Positions 5,706-15,425 of a stretch of DNA of 34,511 nucleotides are shown in pieces. Positions within the stretch are counted from its first letter, which is position 1. Each line of letters begins with the position of its first letter. The notes beneath the pieces are model-generated. The model did not search any database. It saw only the letters and a program-made list of their open reading frames with translations, and was not told the origin of the DNA. A program made the translations under genes and the position numbers. The DNA is taken from the NCBI GenBank assembly GCA_007117885.1, contig SKFS01000001.1, positions 1 through 34,511 of the forward strand, in the 5' to 3' direction. Source of the DNA: Candidatus Izemoplasma sp. GTDB lineage: Bacteria > Bacillota_I > Bacilli_A > Izemoplasmatales > Izemoplasmataceae.

Positions 5706-6306
5706 ACTTATAAAAATGTTTTTTAAAAAACTCAACGTATTGCCGAATTTCAGTTTCGAGAATTCGTAAAGCTTCAGTATTATCGTAATCAACATACTGT
5801 TTTTCCCATTCATGGACAATCCGTGAAAACGACCAGGTCACGGTTTTAAAAATCTCTTCGATATGCTCAGGATGTCTAAACGCAGTACTATCATAATCTT
5901 CAAAGATTTTTTTATAATGTTTTTGATTGTGATGATTATAAATCTTTAACCGCTGCTTAGTGATGGCCTTATCGCTATTCATATGCACACGTTTCATAAA
6001 CGCCGCAATCGTTTTATGTTTTTGAAGACTGCCTGTTTTCCGTAAAATAAGCGTTTGTAAGCGTTCGAAAAAGTCCCGATTATCAAAGGGAAACGCCTCA
6101 AAAACATCACGATAAATGACATTCCATGCTAAATCATAAAGCGTTAAATAAAAGTTCTCTTTATTGTTAAAGTAATGAAACAAGAGTCCTTTAGAGACGT
6201 TGGCTGCACTGACAATATCGTTGGTTGACACTTTTTTATACTCTTGTTGAGCAAACGCTTTAAAGCCCGCTTTAATCAAATTATTTTTTAACCGGTACTC
6301 TTTCAT
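5704..6306 (-). CDS. TetR/AcrR family transcriptional regulator
   Basis: A 200-residue repressor with the typical N-terminal helix-turn-helix: AFAQQEYKKVSTNDIV then AANVSKGLLFHYFNNKENFY, where the second helix and the HYF-x-x-K segment are hallmarks of the family. The C-terminal ligand domain is not recognisable. Two in-frame ATGs exist (6315 and 6306). The 6306 start is preferred because AAAGGA lies about 8 bases before it, whereas it abuts 6315. It is divergent from the small gene at 6367, 60 bases away, which is therefore the likeliest regulated neighbour. Confidence 0.9.
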   Translation of the reverse strand: MKEYRLKNNLIKAGFKAFAQQEYKKVSTNDIVSAANVSKGLLFHYFNNKENFYLTLYDLAWNVIYRDVFEAFPFDNRDFFERLQTLILRKTGSLQKHKTIAAFMKRVHMNSDKAITKQRLKIYNHHNQKHYKKIFEDYDSTAFRHPEHIEEIFKTVTWSFSRIVHEWEKQYVDYDNTEALRILETEIRQYVEFFKKHFYK

Positions 6307-6366
6307 TTGCGCCATCCTTTCATCGCTTATCTACCTATAGCATATCATAAGATTAGGAGTGATACC

Positions 6367-6681
6367 ATGCTTTATGCTAAAGAACTTACGCGGACAAAAC
6401 ACTTAATCGCCAAAGGGCGATACAAAAAAGGCTATTCTAAAGACATTTCGGCGTTTAAACCAATCGCAAGCGAAATCTCCGTGAAAATTAATCAAATCAC
6501 CTACACACCGTATTTTTACGCACCCCTTGAGCAAGTGGTTTTTGGCACCATCGAAAAACAAAACACCTCGCGGGTTATGCATTTTTTATCGTTTACCAAC
6601 TTTGATTACACCTACGGCTCAGAGAGCGTCTATATCTGGTTTGATAAAGACGAGGATCCGTTTGTATATCTTGAGGATTAA
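6367..6681 (+). CDS. Small orphan protein, unknown function
   Basis: I do not recognise this 104-residue protein. The open frame extends upstream to 6307, but ATG 6367 is chosen because TTAGGAG precedes it by about 8 bases and the upstream part overlaps the TetR gene start. The N-terminal third is basic (KELTRTKHLIAKGRYKKG), while the C-terminus is acidic and aromatic (YIWFDKDEDPFVYLED). There are no membrane segments, cysteine motifs or nucleotide-binding motifs. It is divergent from the TetR gene and lies directly upstream of the lysine operon promoter. It could be a TetR-controlled effector, by position only. Confidence 0.65.
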   Translation: MLYAKELTRTKHLIAKGRYKKGYSKDISAFKPIASEISVKINQITYTPYFYAPLEQVVFGTIEKQNTSRVMHFLSFTNFDYTYGSESVYIWFDKDEDPFVYLED

Positions 6682-6721
6682 GCGTTGATAACTCACCCAT
6701 TTAAGGAATCCTAAAAAACCA

Positions 6722-6751
6722 TTGACAACGCTTACATTTTTAGTCTATAAT
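6722..6751 (+). promoter_or_regulatory. kam operon promoter: Promoter of the lysine fermentation operon
   Basis: TTGACA (6722-6727), an 18-base spacer and TATAAT (6746-6751) match both consensus hexamers. It is the only clear promoter here with a perfect -35. Predicted transcription begins near 6758, just ahead of the riboswitch P1 strand, which fits a leader RNA of about 200 bases. Confidence 0.9.
6723..6736 (+). promoter_or_regulatory. cre-like catabolite-response element overlapping the -35
   Basis: TGACAACGCTTACA matches every fixed position of the cre pattern TGWNANCGNTNWCA bound by CcpA with HPr-Ser-P. It covers most of the -35 and the first part of the spacer, where binding would block RNA polymerase. 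It has one mismatch to the stricter Bacillus pattern (C instead of A at position 4). CcpA is not in this window, so regulation is inferred. Confidence 0.6.
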
Positions 6752-6764
6752 GGAGGCGGTTAGA

Positions 6765-6927
6765 TACAGAGGTGCACGGATTTGGGTACTTAAATCAAAC
6801 GAAGTTGGACATTCATCGATTTAAGGAAGGCAAGCCGTGCCGAAAGTTTATTGGTCGTCCAAAACCAGTAGACTTGATGATTAAAGACAGTCTTTAATCA
6901 TTGCCATTGAGAAAATGGAGAGCTGTG
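6765..6927 (+). ncRNA. L box: Lysine riboswitch (L box) aptamer
   Basis: The conserved segments occur in order: AGAGGTGC (6768-6775), GCCGAA (6839-6844) and GGAGAGCTG (6917-6925). Visible helices are P1 TACAG (6765-6769) with CTGTG (6923-6927), P2 GCACGG (6774-6779) with CCGTGC (6835-6840), an 11-bp arm TGATTAAAGAC (6878-6888) with GTCTTTAATCA (6890-6900), and CCATT (6904-6908) with AATGG (6914-6918). This matches the five-armed lysine aptamer as known from Bacillus lysC. It sits ahead of lysine catabolic genes rather than biosynthetic ones. The P1 3' strand is also part of the terminator 5' arm, so lysine binding should prevent termination. Confidence 0.92.
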
Positions 6928-6952
6928 AAATTCACAGCTCTTTTATCTTTTT
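6919..6952 (+). terminator. Riboswitch-controlled intrinsic terminator
   Basis: GAGCTGTG (6920-6927), loop AAATT, CACAGCTC (6933-6940), then TTTTATCTTTTT. The 5' arm contains all five bases of the P1 3' strand, so aptamer P1 and this hairpin exclude each other. AAGGAGG for the first gene follows at 6953. Confidence 0.92.
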
Positions 6953-6966
6953 AAGGAGGCGTTACG

Positions 6967-7386
6967 ATGATAAAAACAATGAACATTGGCGACACCCGTT
7001 CCTACACCCGGACGATTACCGAAGAAGACGTCCAAAAATTTGCCGAGGTCACCAAAGACTTTAACCCCGCGCATTTTGATGAAGCCTACACTCAAACAAC
7101 TATCTTTAAAAAACCGATTGTTCATGGCATGTTAGTGGGCGCGCTCTTCAGTAAAATATTCGGTCTTGAGTATCCTGGAGAAGGCACCATCTACATCGCT
7201 CAAAGTCTTAAATTTCTTCGCCCTGTCTATCCGAACACCGAACTCATTGTTCGTGTGACAGTGAAAGAAATACTCGCCGAAAAAAACCGTGTCATTTTTA
7301 CCACGGAGATTTTTGATCAAGCCCAACATTGCTTGCTTACGGGCGAAGCGACACTGATGCCTAAAAAGGAGACAACTCATGGATAA
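6967..7386 (+). CDS. MaoC-like enoyl-CoA hydratase (R-specific type)
   Basis: A hot-dog-fold hydratase. The family interconverts crotonyl-CoA or longer enoyl-CoAs and (R)-3-hydroxyacyl-CoA. The catalytic pair is present: Asp31 and His36 in KDFNPAHFDE, followed by the conserved IVHGML. Length (139 residues) fits PhaJ-type hydratases. It is the first gene under the lysine riboswitch and overlaps atoD by 8 bases, so it belongs to the operon. The pathway end makes crotonyl-CoA, which is a plausible substrate, but the classic lysine route reduces crotonyl-CoA to butyryl-CoA and needs no hydratase. A thioesterase or other hot-dog activity cannot be excluded. Confidence 0.85.
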   Translation: MIKTMNIGDTRSYTRTITEEDVQKFAEVTKDFNPAHFDEAYTQTTIFKKPIVHGMLVGALFSKIFGLEYPGEGTIYIAQSLKFLRPVYPNTELIVRVTVKEILAEKNRVIFTTEIFDQAQHCLLTGEATLMPKKETTHG

Positions 7387-8032
7387 AACCCTCGAAAAAA
7401 AGCAGTTTCAAGCGCTTCTAAAAGACGGTCTATCGATTATGGTCGGTGGCTTTATGACCTGCGGCACCCCTGAAACACTCATCGATTGGGTTGTTGAAAG
7501 CGGTGTGAAAGACTTAACGATTATTTGTAATGACGCAGGCTTCCCAGAACAAGGGGTGGGTAAATTAATTAAAAACCACCAAGTGAATACCTTAATTGCA
7601 TCCCATATTGGACTCAATCCATTCGCCGGTGCACAAATGAGCAGTGGCGAACTCAACGTCATCCTTATTCCGCAAGGGACACTTGCCGAACAAATCCGTG
7701 CCCACGGTGCCGGATTAGGGGGCATCCTCACACCCACCGGTCGCAAAACAATCGTCGAAGAAGGCAAACAGCTAATGGCTGTTAACGGCGTGGAGTATTT
7801 ACTCGAACCTGCACTCGGTGCCGATTTAGCACTCATCGAAATCGCCAAGTGCGATCCCTTAGGCAATGCCGTCTACGCAAAAACCGCACGCAACTTCAAT
7901 CCAGTGATGGCCACGGCCTGTGAAACGGTGGTTGCTTTAACCCATAAGATGGTTCCAGCAATCGATCCCGAAGTCATTGTCACGCCACACGTTTTTATCG
8001 ATTACATTGTAAAGGAGCATGACCATGCATGA
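7379..8032 (+). CDS. atoD: Acetoacetate/butyrate CoA-transferase, alpha subunit
   Basis: Subunit A of a family I CoA-transferase. In lysine fermenters this enzyme exchanges CoA between butyryl-CoA and acetoacetate, giving butyrate and acetoacetyl-CoA. The 217-residue length fits. The N-terminal glycine-rich IMVGGFMTCGTPETLI and the segments VNTLIASHIGLNP and RAHGAGLGGILTPTG are typical of AtoD/ScoA alpha chains. It starts within the end of the maoC-like gene and overlaps atoA by 8 bases. Substrate specificity is inferred from the lysine operon context. Confidence 0.92.
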   Translation: MDKTLEKKQFQALLKDGLSIMVGGFMTCGTPETLIDWVVESGVKDLTIICNDAGFPEQGVGKLIKNHQVNTLIASHIGLNPFAGAQMSSGELNVILIPQGTLAEQIRAHGAGLGGILTPTGRKTIVEEGKQLMAVNGVEYLLEPALGADLALIEIAKCDPLGNAVYAKTARNFNPVMATACETVVALTHKMVPAIDPEVIVTPHVFIDYIVKEHDHA

Positions 8033-8672
8033 AAAGGAAATTATCGCGCGTCGCATCGCTAAAGAACTTCGTGATGGCGACCTCGTGAATCTAGGCATTG
8101 GCTTGCCAACGCTAGTTGCTAACTATATCGATCCCAATATCACCGTTTTCTTACAAAGTGAAAACGGCTTAATCGGACTCGGTCCAAGTCCAGAAGAAGG
8201 ACACGAAGACCCAAACCTCACCAATGCTGGCGGCCAGTATGTCACACTTAATCCTTACGGCATGTATTTTGATTCGGCGACCAGTTTCGGAATTATCCGT
8301 GGTGGCCATGTAGACATCACTGTCCTCGGTGCCTTAGAAGTCGACGCTGAAGGATCCTTAGCTTCGTGGATCATTCCAAAAAAACTCGTACCCGGCATGG
8401 GCGGCGCGATGGACTTAGTTGTTGGTGCCAAAAAAGTCATTGTTGCAACGACCCATACAAACAAAGGCAAAGCCAAAATAAAAAACCAGTGTCAACTTCC
8501 GCTAACCGCCTATAAAGAAGTCGATCTAATCGTCACCGAACTCGCCGTGATCGCGGTGAAAGAAAACGGCCTACAGCTCCTTGAAAAACACCCTGACACC
8601 ACGATCGAAGAAATCATCGCATTGACCGAAGCACCCTTGCATTACGACACTGTGAAAGATATGGAGGTATAA
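8025..8672 (+). CDS. atoA: Acetoacetate/butyrate CoA-transferase, beta subunit
   Basis: Catalytic subunit B. The family active-site Glu is in [10 protein letters not shown] (Glu46 with this start), which forms the glutamyl-CoA intermediate. GIGLPTLV and the C-terminal region match AtoA/ScoB. The start at 8025 is preferred over the in-frame ATG at 8019 because AAAGGAG (8011-8017) is 7 bases from the former and only 1 base from the latter. It overlaps atoD by 8 bases and is followed 2 bases later by kal. With AtoD it should form the heteromeric transferase that activates acetoacetate. Confidence 0.92.
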
Positions 8673-8674
8673 CT

Positions 8675-9055
8675 ATGAAAGTCATTCACCGTCTACGTTT
8701 ATCCCAACAAGATGCCCATTATGGTGGCAATCTTATCGATGGCGCTAAAGTGCTTGCCCTTTTTGGCGACGTTGCTACCGAACTCTTAATCCATCTCGAT
8801 GGCGATGAAGGCTTATTTAGAAGCTACTCAAGCGTCGATTTTCTCGCCCCCCTATACGCCGGTGACTTTATCGAAGTCGTCGGTGAAATTACCAAAGTCG
8901 GCAACACCAGTCGACAAATGACGTTTTCCTGCTTTAAAGTCATTGAAGCACGCCCCGATATTAGTGAAAGTGCCGCTGAATGCTTACCAGAAAAAATCCT
9001 CACAACACACGCTGTAGGGACGTGTATTACACCGAAGGATAAGCAACGTAAATAA
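8675..9055 (+). CDS. kal: 3-aminobutyryl-CoA ammonia-lyase
   Basis: Releases ammonia from L-3-aminobutyryl-CoA to give crotonyl-CoA, the last nitrogen-removing step of lysine fermentation. The 126-residue hot-dog protein begins with [23 protein letters not shown], characteristic of Kal. The early HYGG and the later [12 protein letters not shown] segment fit the acyl-CoA hot-dog fold. It sits between atoA (2 bases upstream) and kce, which it overlaps by one base (TAATG). This order is the conserved context from which Kal was originally identified in fermenters. Identification rests on both sequence and context. Confidence 0.9.
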
Positions 9056-9894
9056 TGGAAAAACTCATTATAACCTGCGCGATTACTGGGGCAGAAGTTA
9101 CCAAAAACGACAATCCCTACGTGCCGTATACTGCCGAAGAAATGGCCGAAGAAGCCTATCAAGCCCATCAAGCAGGGGCCGCGATTATCCACCTTCATGC
9201 CCGCTATGATGATGGCACACCAACGCAAGATAAAGCCCGCTATGAAACCCTCATTAAAGCCATTCGAGAACGTTGTCCTGACGTGATCATCCAAGTCTCA
9301 ACCGGCGGCGCCGTTGGCATGGATATCGCGACACGCATCAACGTCACAGAACTGCCTTTAGAAATGGCAACCTTAGACTGTGGGACCCTAAACTTTGGGG
9401 GCGATGCCATCTTTGTGAACACAGAAAACGACATTAAATATGTCGCCAAAACATTAAAAGAACGCGGCATCTATCCCGAACTTGAATGTTTTGAAAAAGG
9501 CCATATTGACATGGTTTTACGCCTTTACAAAAAAGGCTTCATCCACCCACCCTTACACTTTAGTTTTGTCCTCGGTGTCAACGGTGGCATGACCGGTGAA
9601 GCCCGAGACTTTCATTTTCTCCGGGAATCGATTCCTAGCGATGCGACATACAGTGTCGCCGGCATCGGCCGTTACGAACTGCCACTTGCCGAACTCGCCA
9701 TTGCCCATGGCGGTCATGTGCGCGTCGGTTTAGAAGACAACATCTTTATTCGTAAAGGCGTTCTTGCCAACGGCAATCAAGAACTCGTAAACGCCGTTAA
9801 AACCCTTGCTAAAAAGTACCAGCGTGACATTGCTTCACCCGCTGAAGCACGCGCTATCTTATCGATGAAGGAGAAAACCGATGATGTATTGTAA
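9055..9894 (+). CDS. kce: 3-keto-5-aminohexanoate cleavage enzyme
   Basis: Condenses 3-keto-5-aminohexanoate with acetyl-CoA and cleaves it to acetoacetate and 3-aminobutyryl-CoA. It is a zinc TIM-barrel enzyme (BKACE family). The zinc ligands His46 and His48 are seen in IIHLHAR, and later segments QVSTGGAVGM, LECFEKGHID, FVLGVNGGMTG and HVRVGLEDN are family hallmarks, the last containing the conserved Glu. The 279-residue length fits. It starts on the kal stop codon and overlaps kdd by 14 bases. Given its neighbours kal and kdd, the substrate is well supported within this otherwise broad family. Confidence 0.93.
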   Translation: MEKLIITCAITGAEVTKNDNPYVPYTAEEMAEEAYQAHQAGAAIIHLHARYDDGTPTQDKARYETLIKAIRERCPDVIIQVSTGGAVGMDIATRINVTELPLEMATLDCGTLNFGGDAIFVNTENDIKYVAKTLKERGIYPELECFEKGHIDMVLRLYKKGFIHPPLHFSFVLGVNGGMTGEARDFHFLRESIPSDATYSVAGIGRYELPLAELAIAHGGHVRVGLEDNIFIRKGVLANGNQELVNAVKTLAKKYQRDIASPAEARAILSMKEKTDDVL

Positions 9895-10927
9895 ATACGG
9901 TAGCCACCGAGTCATCCACCCTAAAAACACTCTGCCTCAAGCGGCCGATAAAATTGATAATCATATGGTTTGTTTAGACAACGAAATGCTCATTGATGTC
10001 GAAACACTAAACATTGATTCGGCTTCATTTCATCAAATCAAAGAAGCCTGCAACTACGATATTGAAGCGATGAAATCGATGATTTTAAGCATTGTCCAAC
10101 GCCAAGGCAAAATGCAAAACCCCGTCACAAAAAGCGGCGGCATGCTCATTGGTTCAGTGCGTGAAGTCGGAAAAAACTTTCACAATCAAAACCTTAAAAA
10201 AGGGCAAAAAATAGCCACCTTAGTTTCCTTATCCCTCACGCCCCTCTTCATTAAAACTATCAAAGCCATCCACATCGAAAACGAACAAGTCGATATTGAA
10301 GGTCAAGCGATTCTCTTCGATTCAGGCATTTACGCAGTCATTCCTGAAGACCTTAACGAGCACCTTGTCCTCGCTGCCCTCGATGTCGCCGGCGCTCCCG
10401 CTCAAGTTAAACGCCTCAGCAAAAAAGACGACACCGTCGTCATCATCGGTGCCGCGGGAAAAAGTGGCTTGCTTTGCGCTTATCAAGCCAAGCAAAACGT
10501 CGGACCCAAAGGCACCGTCATTGGCGTTGTCAATGAAGCGTGGCAAATCGATGTTTTAAAGGCGTTAGACCTGTGCGATGAAATCCTTTTAGAAGACGCC
10601 ACAAAACCGCTGGCTGTCTATCAAAAAGTGCATGACCTAACGGCGGGAAAACTCGCCGACTTAACGCTCAACGTCGTCAATGTTGAAAACACCGAGATGA
10701 CCACTATCTTAGCGACAAAAAACCACGGTATCGTCTATTTTTTCAGCATGGCAACCTCGTTTACTAAAGCGGCACTCGGCGCTGAAGGCATTGGTAAAGA
10801 TGTCACCATGATCATCGGCAATGGCTACTGTCAAGACCACGCTAACATTACGTTAGACTTACTTCGCCAAGCGCCAAAAATCAAAGCCTACTTCGAGAAA
10901 AAATACACGTCAGGAGGTCCACGATGA
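9881..10927 (+). CDS. kdd: L-erythro-3,5-diaminohexanoate dehydrogenase
   Basis: Oxidative deamination of 3,5-diaminohexanoate to 3-keto-5-aminohexanoate with NAD(P)+. The 348-residue protein has a GroES-like N-terminal half and a nucleotide-binding Rossmann motif VVIIGAAGKSG at residues 186-196. It is related to alcohol dehydrogenase-type oxidoreductases, but the N-terminal segment GSHRVIHPKNTLPQAA is typical of Kdd. AAGGAG lies 9 bases before the first of two adjacent ATGs (9881, 9884), so the exact start may be one codon later. It overlaps kamA by the ATGA tetranucleotide. It produces NAD(P)H and ammonia, which ties it to the redox genes downstream in the window. Confidence 0.93.
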   Translation: MMYCKYGSHRVIHPKNTLPQAADKIDNHMVCLDNEMLIDVETLNIDSASFHQIKEACNYDIEAMKSMILSIVQRQGKMQNPVTKSGGMLIGSVREVGKNFHNQNLKKGQKIATLVSLSLTPLFIKTIKAIHIENEQVDIEGQAILFDSGIYAVIPEDLNEHLVLAALDVAGAPAQVKRLSKKDDTVVIIGAAGKSGLLCAYQAKQNVGPKGTVIGVVNEAWQIDVLKALDLCDEILLEDATKPLAVYQKVHDLTAGKLADLTLNVVNVENTEMTTILATKNHGIVYFFSMATSFTKAALGAEGIGKDVTMIIGNGYCQDHANITLDLLRQAPKIKAYFEKKYTSGGPR

Positions 10928-12198
10928 AAAATCAATTTAACACGCTTCATCATCAACGACGAGCCCAGTATTTCCCCAACGTCACTGACGAACAATGGAA
11001 TGATTGGAAGTGGCAAACAAAACACCGCATTAAAAAGGTGGAAGATCTCAAACAAACGCTAACCCTAAGTGACCGAGAAGAACAGATGATCAATGACGTA
11101 CTCGGTCGCTTTCGCATGGCGATTACCCCTTATTACTTTACACTGATCAATCCAGAAAGAATCGATTGTCCGATTCGTGCCCAAGCGATTCCTTTTGGCA
11201 ATGAACTCAATATCGGTAAATACGATTTACACGACCCGCTATCAGAAGATCACGACTCGCCCGTCCCTGGGTTAACCCATCGCTATCCCGACCGCGTTTT
11301 ATTTCTTATCACCGATATGTGCAGCATGTACTGTCGTCATTGTACACGCCGTCGTTTCGCTGGCATGAAAGACGCTGAAATGACAAAAACACATATCGAC
11401 TTAGCCATCGAGTACATCGCTGACCATCCTGAGATAAACGACGTGCTATTAAGCGGTGGTGACGCGTTCTTAGTCAGCGATGAACGGATTGAATACATCT
11501 TAGAAAAACTGCGCGCCATCGACCATATTGAAGTCATTCGCTTCGGCACACGAACCCCTGTCGTCATGCCTCAACGCATCACCGACAAACTCGTCAACAT
11601 CTTAAAAAAATACCATCCAATCTGGGTGAACACCCATTTCAATCATCCCGACGAAATTACGCAAGAAGCGGCCTCAGCCATCGATAAACTGAGCTTCGCC
11701 GGCATTCCCGTGGGCAACCAAAGCGTTCTCTTACGCGGTGTCAACGACTGCGTCCATGTCATGCGCCGTCTCGTCAAAAAACTCATCGCCATTCGCGTTC
11801 GTCCTTACTACATTTACCAATGTGACCTATCAATGGGCATCGAACACTTTCGTACCCCAGTAAGTAAAGGCGTCGAAATTATTGAAGGCTTACGCGGACA
11901 CATTAGCGGATTTGCAGTGCCCACGTTCGTCGTAGACGCCCCAGGTGGTGGCGGCAAGATTCCTGTGATGCCAAACTACGTCATCTCAAGCGCCCCTGGA
12001 AAAATCGTCTTAAGAAACTACGAAGGCGTCATTACAACCTACAGTGAACCGACCCATTATGTCGCTGAGTGTCACTGTGAGGACTGCCAAACAAAACTTA
12101 GCGATGGTGTCAGTGGATTACTCTTTGGTAAACGTATTTCTTTAGAGCCTAAAGAACTCTCTAGAAAAGAACGGATTAAACGTGAACATTCCAGCTAA
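10924..12198 (+). CDS. kamA: Lysine 2,3-aminomutase (radical SAM)
   Basis: Converts L-lysine to L-beta-lysine using S-adenosylmethionine, a [4Fe-4S] cluster and PLP. The radical SAM cysteines are C133, C137 and C140 (CSMYCRHC). PLP Lys is K345 in APGGGGKIPV. The substrate-binding Asp residues align at D302 and D339. C-terminal zinc ligands C383, C385 and C388 together with C276 match the interdomain zinc site of the clostridial enzyme. All key residues are present, and the 424-residue length is normal. It overlaps kdd by 4 bases and the P-loop gene by 17. This is the entry enzyme of the pathway. Confidence 0.97.
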   Translation: MKNQFNTLHHQRRAQYFPNVTDEQWNDWKWQTKHRIKKVEDLKQTLTLSDREEQMINDVLGRFRMAITPYYFTLINPERIDCPIRAQAIPFGNELNIGKYDLHDPLSEDHDSPVPGLTHRYPDRVLFLITDMCSMYCRHCTRRRFAGMKDAEMTKTHIDLAIEYIADHPEINDVLLSGGDAFLVSDERIEYILEKLRAIDHIEVIRFGTRTPVVMPQRITDKLVNILKKYHPIWVNTHFNHPDEITQEAASAIDKLSFAGIPVGNQSVLLRGVNDCVHVMRRLVKKLIAIRVRPYYIYQCDLSMGIEHFRTPVSKGVEIIEGLRGHISGFAVPTFVVDAPGGGGKIPVMPNYVISSAPGKIVLRNYEGVITTYSEPTHYVAECHCEDCQTKLSDGVSGLLFGKRISLEPKELSRKERIKREHSS

Positions 12199-13135
12199 AA
12201 TCCACACTTTAGCGATTTTTGGCCTCGCCAAAAACACCGGTAAAACAACGACGCTTAACGCCATAATAAACGCCACAAAACGTACGATTGCCATCACAAG
12301 CATCGGTTTAGACGGAGAGCACTACGACCAGATTAACTTTTTACCTAAACCCCAGATTACCTTGCCTAAAGGGACCATCATTGCCACTGCAGAAGAAACC
12401 CTTACCCACCAAGAAAACATGACGTTGATTAAAAAGACCGCGCTACAAACCGCGTTAGGACCGATTGTAATCGTTCGGACGACAAAACGCGCAAACTTTT
12501 TAATCGCCGGTCCCACCAGTAATCAAGATTTAAACAAACTGCTAGACATCCTTAAACCGATGGCAGACCTCGTTTTAATCGACGGGGCCTTAAACCGGAA
12601 AACATTTACCCAACTAAACTGTATCGATGGCTTAATCTTAGCGACCGGTGCCAGTGTCTCAAAAACCCTTGACGATACGGTGCGCTTAACAAAAAATACC
12701 GTGCAACTCTTTGCGCAAAAAACGACGCATAATCCGCTTTCTTTGCCGTATAAAATCGCCACCGTCATTGGCCAAGAAAAAACCTATTACCAAAGCAAAA
12801 ACTCAACGATTCTAAAACAATGCTTAAAACCTCACGCTAAAATCTATTTTAAAGGCGCGATTACTAATCACTTAATCGATACCGTTTTGAAGTTCAGCGA
12901 AGGTCCTTTAGAACTCATCGCAGAAGACCCAAGCAAATGGCTCTTCGACCTTAAAAAAATCGATTATTTAACGCACAAACAAATCACCCTCAGTGTCCTC
13001 CACGCCGTCAAACTACTCGCCATTACCATTAACCCCACACGGCCATCGGGTGAAAACTACGATGCTGAAGACTTCAAAAAACAGCTTGTAAACACGCTTG
13101 AAATCCCAGTTTACAACGTCTTAGAAGGGAAGTGA
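12182..13135 (+). CDS. P-loop protein of the lysine fermentation cluster (KamB-like), possible aminomutase accessory
   Basis: A 317-residue protein starting with GTG inside the end of kamA. It has a Walker A motif GLAKNTGKTT at residues 14-23 and a Walker-B-like LVLIDGA near residue 133, so it should bind ATP or GTP. Genes of unknown function lie between kamA and kamD in known lysine-fermentation clusters, from memory called kamB and kamC, the latter MutS-like. Only one such gene is present here. A role in loading or reactivating the cobalamin of KamDE is attractive, because P-loop G proteins serve other B12 mutases, but there is no direct evidence. The position assignment is firm; the function is inferred. 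Confidence 0.75.
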   Translation: MNIPAKIHTLAIFGLAKNTGKTTTLNAIINATKRTIAITSIGLDGEHYDQINFLPKPQITLPKGTIIATAEETLTHQENMTLIKKTALQTALGPIVIVRTTKRANFLIAGPTSNQDLNKLLDILKPMADLVLIDGALNRKTFTQLNCIDGLILATGASVSKTLDDTVRLTKNTVQLFAQKTTHNPLSLPYKIATVIGQEKTYYQSKNSTILKQCLKPHAKIYFKGAITNHLIDTVLKFSEGPLELIAEDPSKWLFDLKKIDYLTHKQITLSVLHAVKLLAITINPTRPSGENYDAEDFKKQLVNTLEIPVYNVLEGK

Positions 13136-13138
13136 ATC

Positions 13139-14704
13139 ATGAAACTCAATCTGAATCAAACACAAATCAACCGCTGCCGAGCCCGCGCGAAAACCATTGC
13201 TGATACCATTCAAACGTTTATCGATCAGTCTACGACAGTCAGTGTTGAGCGAACCATCTTACGGTTTTTAAGCATCGACGGTGTCAACCCACTCGATGTA
13301 CCCTATGTGAACGTTATTACTGACCATATCATCGCCGAGGCTGACCTTTCTTTAGGCGTTGCCCATTATCTCAGTTTAGCGATAGAAGACACCGGGCTAA
13401 CCCCTCAAGAAATCGCCCAAGCCATCGACCAAAAACAGCTGAGTCTAAAACCTTACCAAACAAAGACGCATCCTAATCATTCCCTGTTGTATCCTACTAT
13501 TGAAGAACAGTTAAACCGCGTCAATAAACAGCGTCGTATCCGCGAGAAAACTCTGGCCGAAAACCCTAAGAAAAGCACCCCGGAACTGTATGTCATTGTG
13601 GCGACAGGAAACATCTATGAGGACATCGAACAAGCATTATCGGCTGCCCATAAAGGTGCGGACATCATCGCCGTTATCCGCACGACCGGTCAATCTCTAC
13701 TCGACTTCGTGCCTTACGGCCCGACAACCGAAGGGTTCGGCGGCACGATGGCAACCCAAGAAAACTTTAAACTCATGCGCCAAGCACTCGATGACTTCAC
13801 TACCAGCCATCAACGCTACATCAAACTCGTTAACTATGCCAGTGGACTATGCATGCCAGAAATCGCAGCCATCGGCGCTTTAGAACGCCTCGACATGATG
13901 CTAAATGATTCACTTTACGGCATTATCTTTAGAGACATCAATATGCAAAGAACGTTCATTGATCAGTATTTCTCACGCCTCATTAGTGCCTACGCAGGCA
14001 TCACCATCAACACCGGCGAAGACAACTACCTCACAACATCCGATGCCTATGAACACGCACACACAGTGTTAGCGAGCCAGTTTATCAATGAGCAGTTCGC
14101 GAAAAACGCCTTAATGGAAGAACGGTTTATGGGACTCGGTCACGCCTATGAAATCGACCCTAATCTTGAAAATAGCTTTCTTTATGAACTCGCGCAAGCC
14201 GAACTCTCTAAAGCCATCTTTCCTAACGCACCTCTAAAATACATGCCCCCGACAAAACATATGACAGGGGATATCTTTAAAGGGCTCATTCAAAACGCGC
14301 TCTTTAATATCGTCGCGGTGACATCCCATCAAAGCATCCATCTTCTCGGCATGCTCACCGAAGCAATTCACACCCCTTTTATGAGCGATCGTGCCTTAGC
14401 AATCGACAACGCCACTTACATCGCTAAAGCCTTTAAAGATTTTTCCCATGAAATTAGTTACCGGCCCGATGGCATCATTATGAATCGTGCCAACGACGTT
14501 TTACACCAAGCCGAAACCCTCCTCAAGACCATTCAAGAAGAAGGCCTCTTCACCACCCTTGAAAAAGGCCGTTTTGCAGGCATCTCACGAAAACTTAACG
14601 CCGGCAAAGGCCTCGACGGAGTCTTCAAAAAAGCCCCGTCTTATGAAAACCCCGTCATGACACGACTCATTGAGCGTTTAAAGGAGGGCAACCATGAAGA
14701 TTAG
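13139..14704 (+). CDS. kamD: Lysine/beta-lysine 5,6-aminomutase, alpha subunit
   Basis: Large subunit of the adenosylcobalamin- and PLP-dependent mutase that moves the terminal amino group of beta-lysine from C6 to C5. The 521-residue protein contains the conserved core RTTGQSLLDFVPYG then TTEGFGGTMATQENFKLMR (about residues 181-220) and GLGHAYEID around residue 335, all characteristic of KamD. It lies 3 bases after the P-loop gene and overlaps kamE by 11 bases, so the two subunits are translationally coupled. The cofactor demand explains the adenosyltransferase gene at 3168. Confidence 0.95.
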   Translation: MKLNLNQTQINRCRARAKTIADTIQTFIDQSTTVSVERTILRFLSIDGVNPLDVPYVNVITDHIIAEADLSLGVAHYLSLAIEDTGLTPQEIAQAIDQKQLSLKPYQTKTHPNHSLLYPTIEEQLNRVNKQRRIREKTLAENPKKSTPELYVIVATGNIYEDIEQALSAAHKGADIIAVIRTTGQSLLDFVPYGPTTEGFGGTMATQENFKLMRQALDDFTTSHQRYIKLVNYASGLCMPEIAAIGALERLDMMLNDSLYGIIFRDINMQRTFIDQYFSRLISAYAGITINTGEDNYLTTSDAYEHAHTVLASQFINEQFAKNALMEERFMGLGHAYEIDPNLENSFLYELAQAELSKAIFPNAPLKYMPPTKHMTGDIFKGLIQNALFNIVAVTSHQSIHLLGMLTEAIHTPFMSDRALAIDNATYIAKAFKDFSHEISYRPDGIIMNRANDVLHQAETLLKTIQEEGLFTTLEKGRFAGISRKLNAGKGLDGVFKKAPSYENPVMTRLIERLKEGNHED

Positions 14705-15425
14705 ACCGTATGGCGATACTTTGAATGATGGCAAGATTCAACTGAGTTTCACCTTACCACTCCCGTGCAATGCCCATGGTGAAGAAACCGCCAAAGCACT
14801 CGTTCAAAAAATGGGCATTCACGATGTTCAAATCGTTCACGCCTCGCCACTCAACGCAACCTTTAGTTTTTACATCGTCTATGGGACAACCCACCATCAA
14901 ATCGACCCGACAACGATTACTGTCACAGAAATTGATAGTGACACCCTCACTAAAAGTGAGATTGAAGCCTTCATCGCTACCCACTTTGATCGTCCGATTA
15001 CCTTTATTGGCGCGTCAACAGGCACCGACGCTCACACCGTCGGTATTGACGCGATTATGAACATGAAAGGGTACGCAGGACACTATGGCTTAGAACGCTA
15101 TAAAGGCATCCAAGCGATTAACCTCGGCAGTCAGGTTGAAAATGAAACACTTCTTGAAGAAGCGATTAAACATAATGCCGACGTCATTTTAATCAGCCAA
15201 ACGGTGACCCAAAAAGATGTGCACATTCAAAACTTAACCAGTTTTATTGAGCTCCTCGAAGCCGAAGGAAAACGGGACGACTTTATCGTCATCATCGGGG
15301 GTGCAAGAATCAACCATGCCCTCGCCAAAGAACTCGGTTACGATGCCGGTTTCGGCCCTAAAAAATACGCCTATCACGTCGCAAGCTTTGCGGTTCACTT
15401 ACTCAAACAAAAAAAAGACGCCTAG
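14694..15425 (+). CDS. kamE: Lysine/beta-lysine 5,6-aminomutase, beta subunit
   Basis: Carries the cobalamin-binding domain. The DxHxxG motif DAHTVG places the cobalt-binding His at residue 114. The PLP Lys is K125, exactly 11 residues later, the same spacing as His133 and Lys144 of the clostridial enzyme. Further B12-domain segments are INLGSQV and the C-terminal VIIGGARI, DAGFGP. The 243-residue length is normal. AAAGGAGG precedes the ATG within kamD. It is the last gene of the operon, and its stop codon lies inside the terminator hairpin. Confidence 0.96.
   Translation: MKIRPYGDTLNDGKIQLSFTLPLPCNAHGEETAKALVQKMGIHDVQIVHASPLNATFSFYIVYGTTHHQIDPTTITVTEIDSDTLTKSEIEAFIATHFDRPITFIGASTGTDAHTVGIDAIMNMKGYAGHYGLERYKGIQAINLGSQVENETLLEEAIKHNADVILISQTVTQKDVHIQNLTSFIELLEAEGKRDDFIVIIGGARINHALAKELGYDAGFGPKKYAYHVASFAVHLLKQKKDA

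What the first reader, a model, noticed from the sequence alone, without database searches (positions are those of the whole stretch)
6765..6952. Lysine riboswitch wired as an ON switch for lysine fermentation
The L-box aptamer precedes ten lysine-catabolic genes. Its P1 3' strand, CTGTG (6923-6927), is also the core of the terminator 5' arm (6920-6927). P1 and terminator therefore exclude each other, so lysine binding should stop termination. Most known lysine riboswitches repress biosynthesis or uptake. L boxes ahead of catabolic genes have been noted in a few anaerobes, but the direct P1/terminator overlap here gives an explicit mechanism. No separate antiterminator is needed.
Basis: partly seen in the sequence, partly recalled or inferred. 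Interest (0 to 1): 0.75.

Follow-up and report, generated by a model that had tools for sequence, protein, structure and literature searches.

The report
Lysine-activated riboswitch controlling lysine fermentation
Ahead of a ten-gene operon for fermenting lysine, the RNA folds into a known lysine sensor whose closing stem shares its bases with a transcription stop signal, so lysine should switch its own breakdown on; this wiring was already known for this sensor class, and here it is shown to be conserved across a whole bacterial order.

Summary
Window 6759-6933 is a lysine riboswitch aptamer (Rfam RF00168, 69.7 bits, E 2e-18), although Rfam's default filters miss it. It sits between a 12/12 sigma-70-type promoter and an 11-bp terminator, ahead of ten contiguous genes: maoC-like, CoA-transferase A/B, kal, kce, kdd, kamA, kamB, kamD, kamE. 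The P1 3' strand (6923-6927) lies inside the terminator 5' arm (6918-6928). The ON-switch logic is strongly supported by comparison. In all 49 distinct, readable fermentation loci from related Bacilli the terminator 5' arm takes bases of the P1 3' strand, even where the P1 sequence differs. In the same clade 20 other L-boxes (lysA, lysine-type ABC transporter, amidohydrolase) have the terminator 16-45 nt downstream with a classical antiterminator, that is, OFF logic. The wiring is not new: Barrick and Breaker (2007) describe lysine ON riboswitches that bury terminator pieces, and Mukherjee et al. (2017) list lysine riboswitches on kal/kce. New here are the Izemoplasmatales/Acholeplasma-wide clade, the ON/OFF pair within single genomes, and an aptamer subtype in which the otherwise conserved L4-P2 contact is altered while the ligand pocket is invariant. 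Lysine binding and readthrough are inferred, not shown.

The parts
6722..6751 (+). sigma-70-type promoter TTGACA-18-TATAAT; transcript expected to start about 6757-6759
   Evidence: 12 of 12 matches, the only promoter-like site found in 6300-7400; start position is inference
6759..6933 (+). lysine riboswitch aptamer (L-box, RF00168)
   Evidence: 69.7 bits, E 2.3e-18; 140.5 bits with the clade model R1 built partly from it
6765..6769 (+). P1 5' strand (UACAG)
   Evidence: fold of 6758-6932
6805..6810 (+). L2 half of the L2-L3 kissing loop (UUGGAC)
   Evidence: perfect 6-bp complement of 6857-6862; own L2/L3 pairs average 5.5 bp in 37 relatives against 3.7 after swapping partners, 0 of 500 swaps reach it
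6857..6862 (+). L3 half of the kissing loop (GUCCAA)
6919..6923 (+). J5/1 and top of P1 (A162, G163, G165, C166 equivalents), shared between ligand pocket and terminator 5' arm
   Evidence: those four positions invariant in 31 relatives; inside terminator arm
6923..6927 (+). P1 3' strand (CUGUG), also part of the terminator 5' arm
6918..6942 (+). intrinsic terminator hairpin, 11 bp, -15.8 kcal/mol
6943..6952 (+). T-rich tract of the terminator
   Evidence: and sequence
6953..6959 (+). ribosome-binding site AAGGAGG
   Evidence: sequence
6967..7386 (+). MaoC-like enoyl-CoA hydratase, first gene
   Evidence: PF01575 2.7e-21
7379..8032 (+). CoA-transferase subunit A
   Evidence: TIGR02429 over cut-off
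8019..8672 (+). CoA-transferase subunit B
   Evidence: TIGR02428 over cut-off
8675..9055 (+). kal, 3-aminobutyryl-CoA ammonia lyase
   Evidence: NF052388 over cut-off
9055..9894 (+). kce, 3-keto-5-aminohexanoate cleavage enzyme
   Evidence: NF052387 over cut-off
9881..10927 (+). kdd, 3,5-diaminohexanoate dehydrogenase
   Evidence: NF052381 over cut-off
10924..12198 (+). kamA, lysine 2,3-aminomutase
   Evidence: TIGR03820 over cut-off
12182..13135 (+). kamB, lysine 5,6-aminomutase reactivase subunit
   Evidence: NF052386 over cut-off
13139..14704 (+). kamD, lysine 5,6-aminomutase alpha
   Evidence: NF052384 over cut-off
14694..15425 (+). kamE, lysine 5,6-aminomutase beta
   Evidence: NF052385 over cut-off

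Best explanation
A lysine riboswitch with ON logic acting on transcription termination. RNA polymerase starts just upstream of the aptamer. When lysine is plentiful it is bound in the five-way junction; this locks J5/1 and the short P1 helix, which takes up the 5' arm of the terminator, and polymerase reads on into the ten-gene lysine fermentation operon. Without lysine the 5-bp P1 gives way as soon as the terminator 3' arm is transcribed, the 11-bp terminator forms and transcription stops. No antiterminator is used. Shown here: aptamer, overlap, operon and conservation. Inferred: lysine binding, readthrough and kinetics.
For: RF00168 hit. All 19 pocket or junction positions checked are invariant in 31 relatives. 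Kissing loop covaries. P1 beats the alternatives by 2.5 kcal/mol in transcripts ending up to 6934; the terminator state is better by 11.5 kcal/mol from 6942, so the outcome depends on whether P1 is locked in time. No leader segment pairs with either terminator arm better than in shuffled leaders. Terminator 5' arm takes P1 3'-strand bases in 42 of 42 readable fermentation loci (34 of them all four P1 bases) and in 7 further distinct loci, some with unrelated P1 sequences such as UUAAUAG/CUAUUAA and GGUAG/CUACC. Contrast: 20 other L-boxes of the clade have no overlap, the terminator begins 16-45 nt after GCU, and 19 of 20 show an antiterminator pairing P1/J5/1 bases with the terminator arm; their genes sampled are lysA, lysine/arginine-type substrate-binding proteins and an M20-type amidohydrolase.
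Against: No experiment. Thermodynamics at full length favours the terminator by more than 11 kcal/mol, so lysine must act within the short time before the terminator 3' arm emerges. P1 is only 4-6 bp. The L4-P2 contact differs from the canonical aptamer, so affinity could differ.
Confidence: 0.88

Rival explanations
1. The aptamer is a variant that senses another ligand of the pathway, such as beta-lysine or 3,5-diaminohexanoate, with the same ON wiring.
For: The fermentation aptamers form their own branch (88/99) apart from the lysA/transporter aptamers of the same clade and differ from them at the loop E motif and L4.
Against: The differences lie in the peripheral L4-P2 contact; the pocket positions are invariant, and lysine is the substrate of the operon.
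Confidence: 0.06
2. OFF switch: lysine promotes termination, as in the classical L-box.
For: Most lysine riboswitches are OFF; 20 L-boxes in the same clade are built that way.
Against: P1 and the terminator share the same strand, so ligand-stabilised P1 opposes the terminator; no antiterminator was found in this leader.
Confidence: 0.02
3. The aptamer binds lysine but the main control is elsewhere (promoter, translation or mRNA stability) and the terminator is only weakly affected.
For: The predicted full-length energy gap favours termination; dual control is reported for other lysine riboswitches (title of ref. 42 in PMC5584792).
Against: Strict conservation of the overlap in 49 loci; the ribosome-binding site lies outside both structures.
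Confidence: 0.04

Closest known systems
ON-type lysine riboswitches on lysine catabolic genes (kal/kce of Clostridium sticklandii, kal of Fusobacterium nucleatum, pspF3-kal-kce of Thermoanaerobacter; PMC5584792)
   Same: Same aptamer class, same pathway genes, positive regulation by lysine predicted there too.
   Different: Here the switch heads the whole ten-gene operon, in Izemoplasmatales and related Bacilli; the overlap is tested over 49 loci with OFF copies as control.
Lysine, glycine and adenine riboswitches with ON logic that bury terminator pieces (Barrick and Breaker 2007, PMC2258182, citing Rodionov et al. 2003)
   Same: Ligand-stabilised helix takes up a terminator strand; no extra antiterminator.
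   Different: Nothing in principle.
Bacillus subtilis lysC L-box (OFF; PMC6614840)
   Same: Aptamer fold, junction, kissing loop.
   Different: There lysine-stabilised P1 blocks an antiterminator and lets the terminator form; here P1 blocks the terminator itself.
Lysine fermentation operon kamADE-kal-kce-kdd of anaerobes
   Same: All pathway-specific genes present.
   Different: A MaoC-like gene and a CoA-transferase pair lead the operon.

Membership tests
Lysine riboswitch (RF00168) | Covariance-model score above the curated threshold | tested here: met
   69.7 bits against 30; missed by default filters
Lysine riboswitch (RF00168) | Conserved junction and pocket nucleotides (list in PMC3764141) | tested here: met
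   19 positions checked, all identical in 31 of 31; placement through the Rfam alignment
Lysine riboswitch (RF00168) | L2-L3 kissing loop | tested here: met
   UUGGAC/GUCCAA in window; own pairing beats swapped partners in 37 relatives
Lysine riboswitch (RF00168) | Canonical loop E (AGUA/GAAAGG) with L4 contact, triple A127-A23-G69 (a common but peripheral feature, not one that defines the family) | tested here: not met
   GGUA/GAAGG and a varied L4 pentaloop, mostly GNACR, in the fermentation copies; AGUA in 20 of 20 other copies of the clade. The A127 equivalent is kept in 29 of 31. It lies outside the ligand pocket, and the Rfam score is well above threshold in spite of it.
Lysine riboswitch (RF00168) | Direct, selective binding of lysine | not testable with these tools
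   needs in-line probing or calorimetry
ON-type transcriptional riboswitch | P1 strand is part of the terminator stem, no antiterminator | tested here: met
ON-type transcriptional riboswitch | Ligand raises readthrough | not testable with these tools
   needs in vitro transcription
Classical OFF L-box | Antiterminator formed by P1 3' strand and terminator 5' arm downstream | tested here: not met
   terminator 5' arm includes the P1 3' strand itself; no leader segment pairs better than shuffles

The most novel reading that the evidence does not exclude
The fermentation-linked aptamers are a distinct lysine aptamer subtype, in which the pentaloop L4 and its receptor in P2 have changed together (GNACR loop with GGUA/GAAGG instead of GAAUA with AGUA/GAAAGG), perhaps tuning it to respond at higher lysine than the OFF copy in the same cell, so that breakdown starts only after uptake and synthesis have been shut off.
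Probability: 0.4. Interest if true: 0.45.

Novelty: new member of a known kind. Interest (0 to 1): 0.33.

Why it matters
It gives a large, well-controlled comparative set (49 ON against 20 OFF L-boxes, both in the same genomes in several cases) showing how one aptamer class is wired in opposite directions by moving the terminator by about 20-50 nt. It predicts paired regulation: lysine shuts off synthesis and uptake and turns on fermentation. It also shows that default Rfam filters miss 7 of 30 of these relatives and the window's own copy, so lysine ON switches are under-annotated.

Tried and rejected
Chance hit or non-L-box: rejected (conservation). Hidden antiterminator giving OFF logic: leader segments pair with the terminator arms no better than in shuffled leaders. 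Second lysine riboswitch in the window's own genome: none found with R1, but the genome is about 90% complete and RF00168 at default filters misses even the known copy, so this is weak. A search of plasmid records found only distant partial matches covering at most 17% of the query. Rodionov 2003, Serganov 2008, Serganov and Patel 2009 and Garst 2008/2012 are not held, so the prior ON-switch claim rests on PMC2258182 and PMC5584792. No experimental proof of a natural lysine ON switch was seen in the paper searches, which cover open-licence papers only and were read mostly as titles and abstracts.

Full report
What is there. The window comes from a roughly 90% complete, 1.75-Mb genome whose named relatives are Izemoplasmatales/Acholeplasmataceae ('Candidatus Izimaplasma'). 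A promoter with perfect -35 and -10 boxes ends at 6751. The next 175 bases match the lysine riboswitch model end to end, 69.7 bits, E 2.3e-18. Rfam's default filters lose this hit, and they lose 7 of 30 relatives as well (found: 3 of 4, 7 of 13 and 13 of 13). An 11-bp terminator and T-rich tract follow, then a ribosome-binding site and ten contiguous genes that cover the lysine fermentation pathway.

The overlap. P1 is UACAG/CUGUG, 6765-6769 with 6923-6927. The terminator 5' arm is 6918-6928, so it contains the whole P1 3' strand and J5/1, which is part of the ligand pocket. Folding transcripts of growing length shows P1 preferred by 2.5 kcal/mol up to 6934, near a tie at 6936, and the terminator preferred by 11.5 kcal/mol from 6942. 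The decision must therefore be made during transcription, and anything that locks P1 prevents termination. No leader segment pairs with either terminator arm better than in shuffled leaders, so no antiterminator is needed or visible.

Comparative test. A clade covariance model (R1) finds the element in 43 of 50 sources. Of the seven without it, six contigs are cut off near kce and one (L061) carries a group II intron in its place. In one of the 43 (L050) the terminator region is N. In the 42 readable loci the terminator 5' arm always takes P1 3'-strand bases: 34 fully, 6 with three of four, and 2 Haloplasma-like loci with the outer half. Seven further distinct loci from other families of the class give the same result, including ones whose P1 sequences are unrelated (the other four loci of that call repeat earlier contigs). 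The overlap is thus kept while the sequence changes.

Internal control. The same clade carries other L-boxes. Twenty were read: those sampled by profile lie ahead of diaminopimelate decarboxylase, lysine/arginine-type ABC substrate-binding proteins and an M20-type amidohydrolase. None has the overlap; the terminator starts 16-45 nt after GCU, and in 19 of 20 the P1/J5/1 bases pair with the terminator arm as a classical antiterminator. P1 could not be counted by script in 3 of these 20; on the 17 that could, against 42 fermentation loci scored conservatively as 40 positive, Fisher p = 6e-13. Related sequences are not independent, so the p-value only illustrates the contrast. Several genomes (for example G010, G017, G025, G029, G052, G056, G058, G063) hold one L-box of each kind.

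Ligand. All 19 pocket or junction positions checked are identical in 31 relatives, and the L2-L3 kissing loop covaries (5.5 bp own against 3.7 bp with swapped partners, 0 of 500 swaps as high). This supports lysine as the ligand. One feature departs from the canonical aptamer. The P2 loop E motif reads GGUA/GAAGG and L4 is mostly GNACR, whereas the other L-boxes of the clade read AGUA/GAAAGG with GAAUA-like L4. PMC3764141 reports the A127-A23-G69 triple at this contact as fully conserved in its alignment; here the P2 side is changed while the A127 equivalent stays. The fermentation aptamers form one side of a branch with support 88/99. The numbering is carried over through the Rfam alignment and the paper's base list, not through a structure.

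Novelty. Barrick and Breaker 2007 (PMC2258182) state that certain lysine riboswitches with ON logic bury terminator pieces in alternative pairings, citing earlier comparative work (their reference 21, which I take to be Rodionov 2003). Mukherjee 2017 (PMC5584792) lists lysine riboswitches ahead of kal/kce in C. sticklandii, F. nucleatum and Thermoanaerobacter, positively regulated. The class, the context and the wiring are therefore known; this is a new member, with a clade I found no earlier mention of and a possible aptamer subtype.

Shown: aptamer, operon, overlap, conservation, contrast with OFF copies. Inferred: lysine binding, direction of control in the cell, kinetics, and any tuning by the changed L4-P2 contact.

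Noticed in passing
L039, L041, L045, L046, L047, L052, L067, L076 (about 2.8-3 kb upstream of the lysine riboswitch): A cobalamin riboswitch (RF00174, 83-89 bits) precedes a lipoprotein-like protein, a small secreted-type protein and a membrane protein that looks like an ECF transporter S component, next to the lysine operon; the aminomutase KamDE needs B12. No profile match for the two smaller proteins tested.
   Followed up: partly
L061:1-804: In one of two near-identical contigs of MAG GH50 a group II intron (RF00029 at 729-804, with maturase/reverse transcriptase) sits in the T tract directly behind the site of the riboswitch terminator, between switch and operon.
   Followed up: partly
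L122, L125, L126: Short lysine riboswitches (139-142 nt, P2a and P3 nearly absent) ahead of an M20-type amidohydrolase; P1 not detected by the script, so the junction may differ.
   Followed up: no
window 6759-6933: A 69.7-bit RF00168 match is lost by default cmscan filters and by the whole-genome family search, so absence calls for this family in such genomes are unreliable.
   Followed up: yes
L112-L131: Many transporter/lysA L-boxes of this clade have ACUCC in place of the usual CUGUCA before P5 and GGCGCU in J5/1.
   Followed up: no
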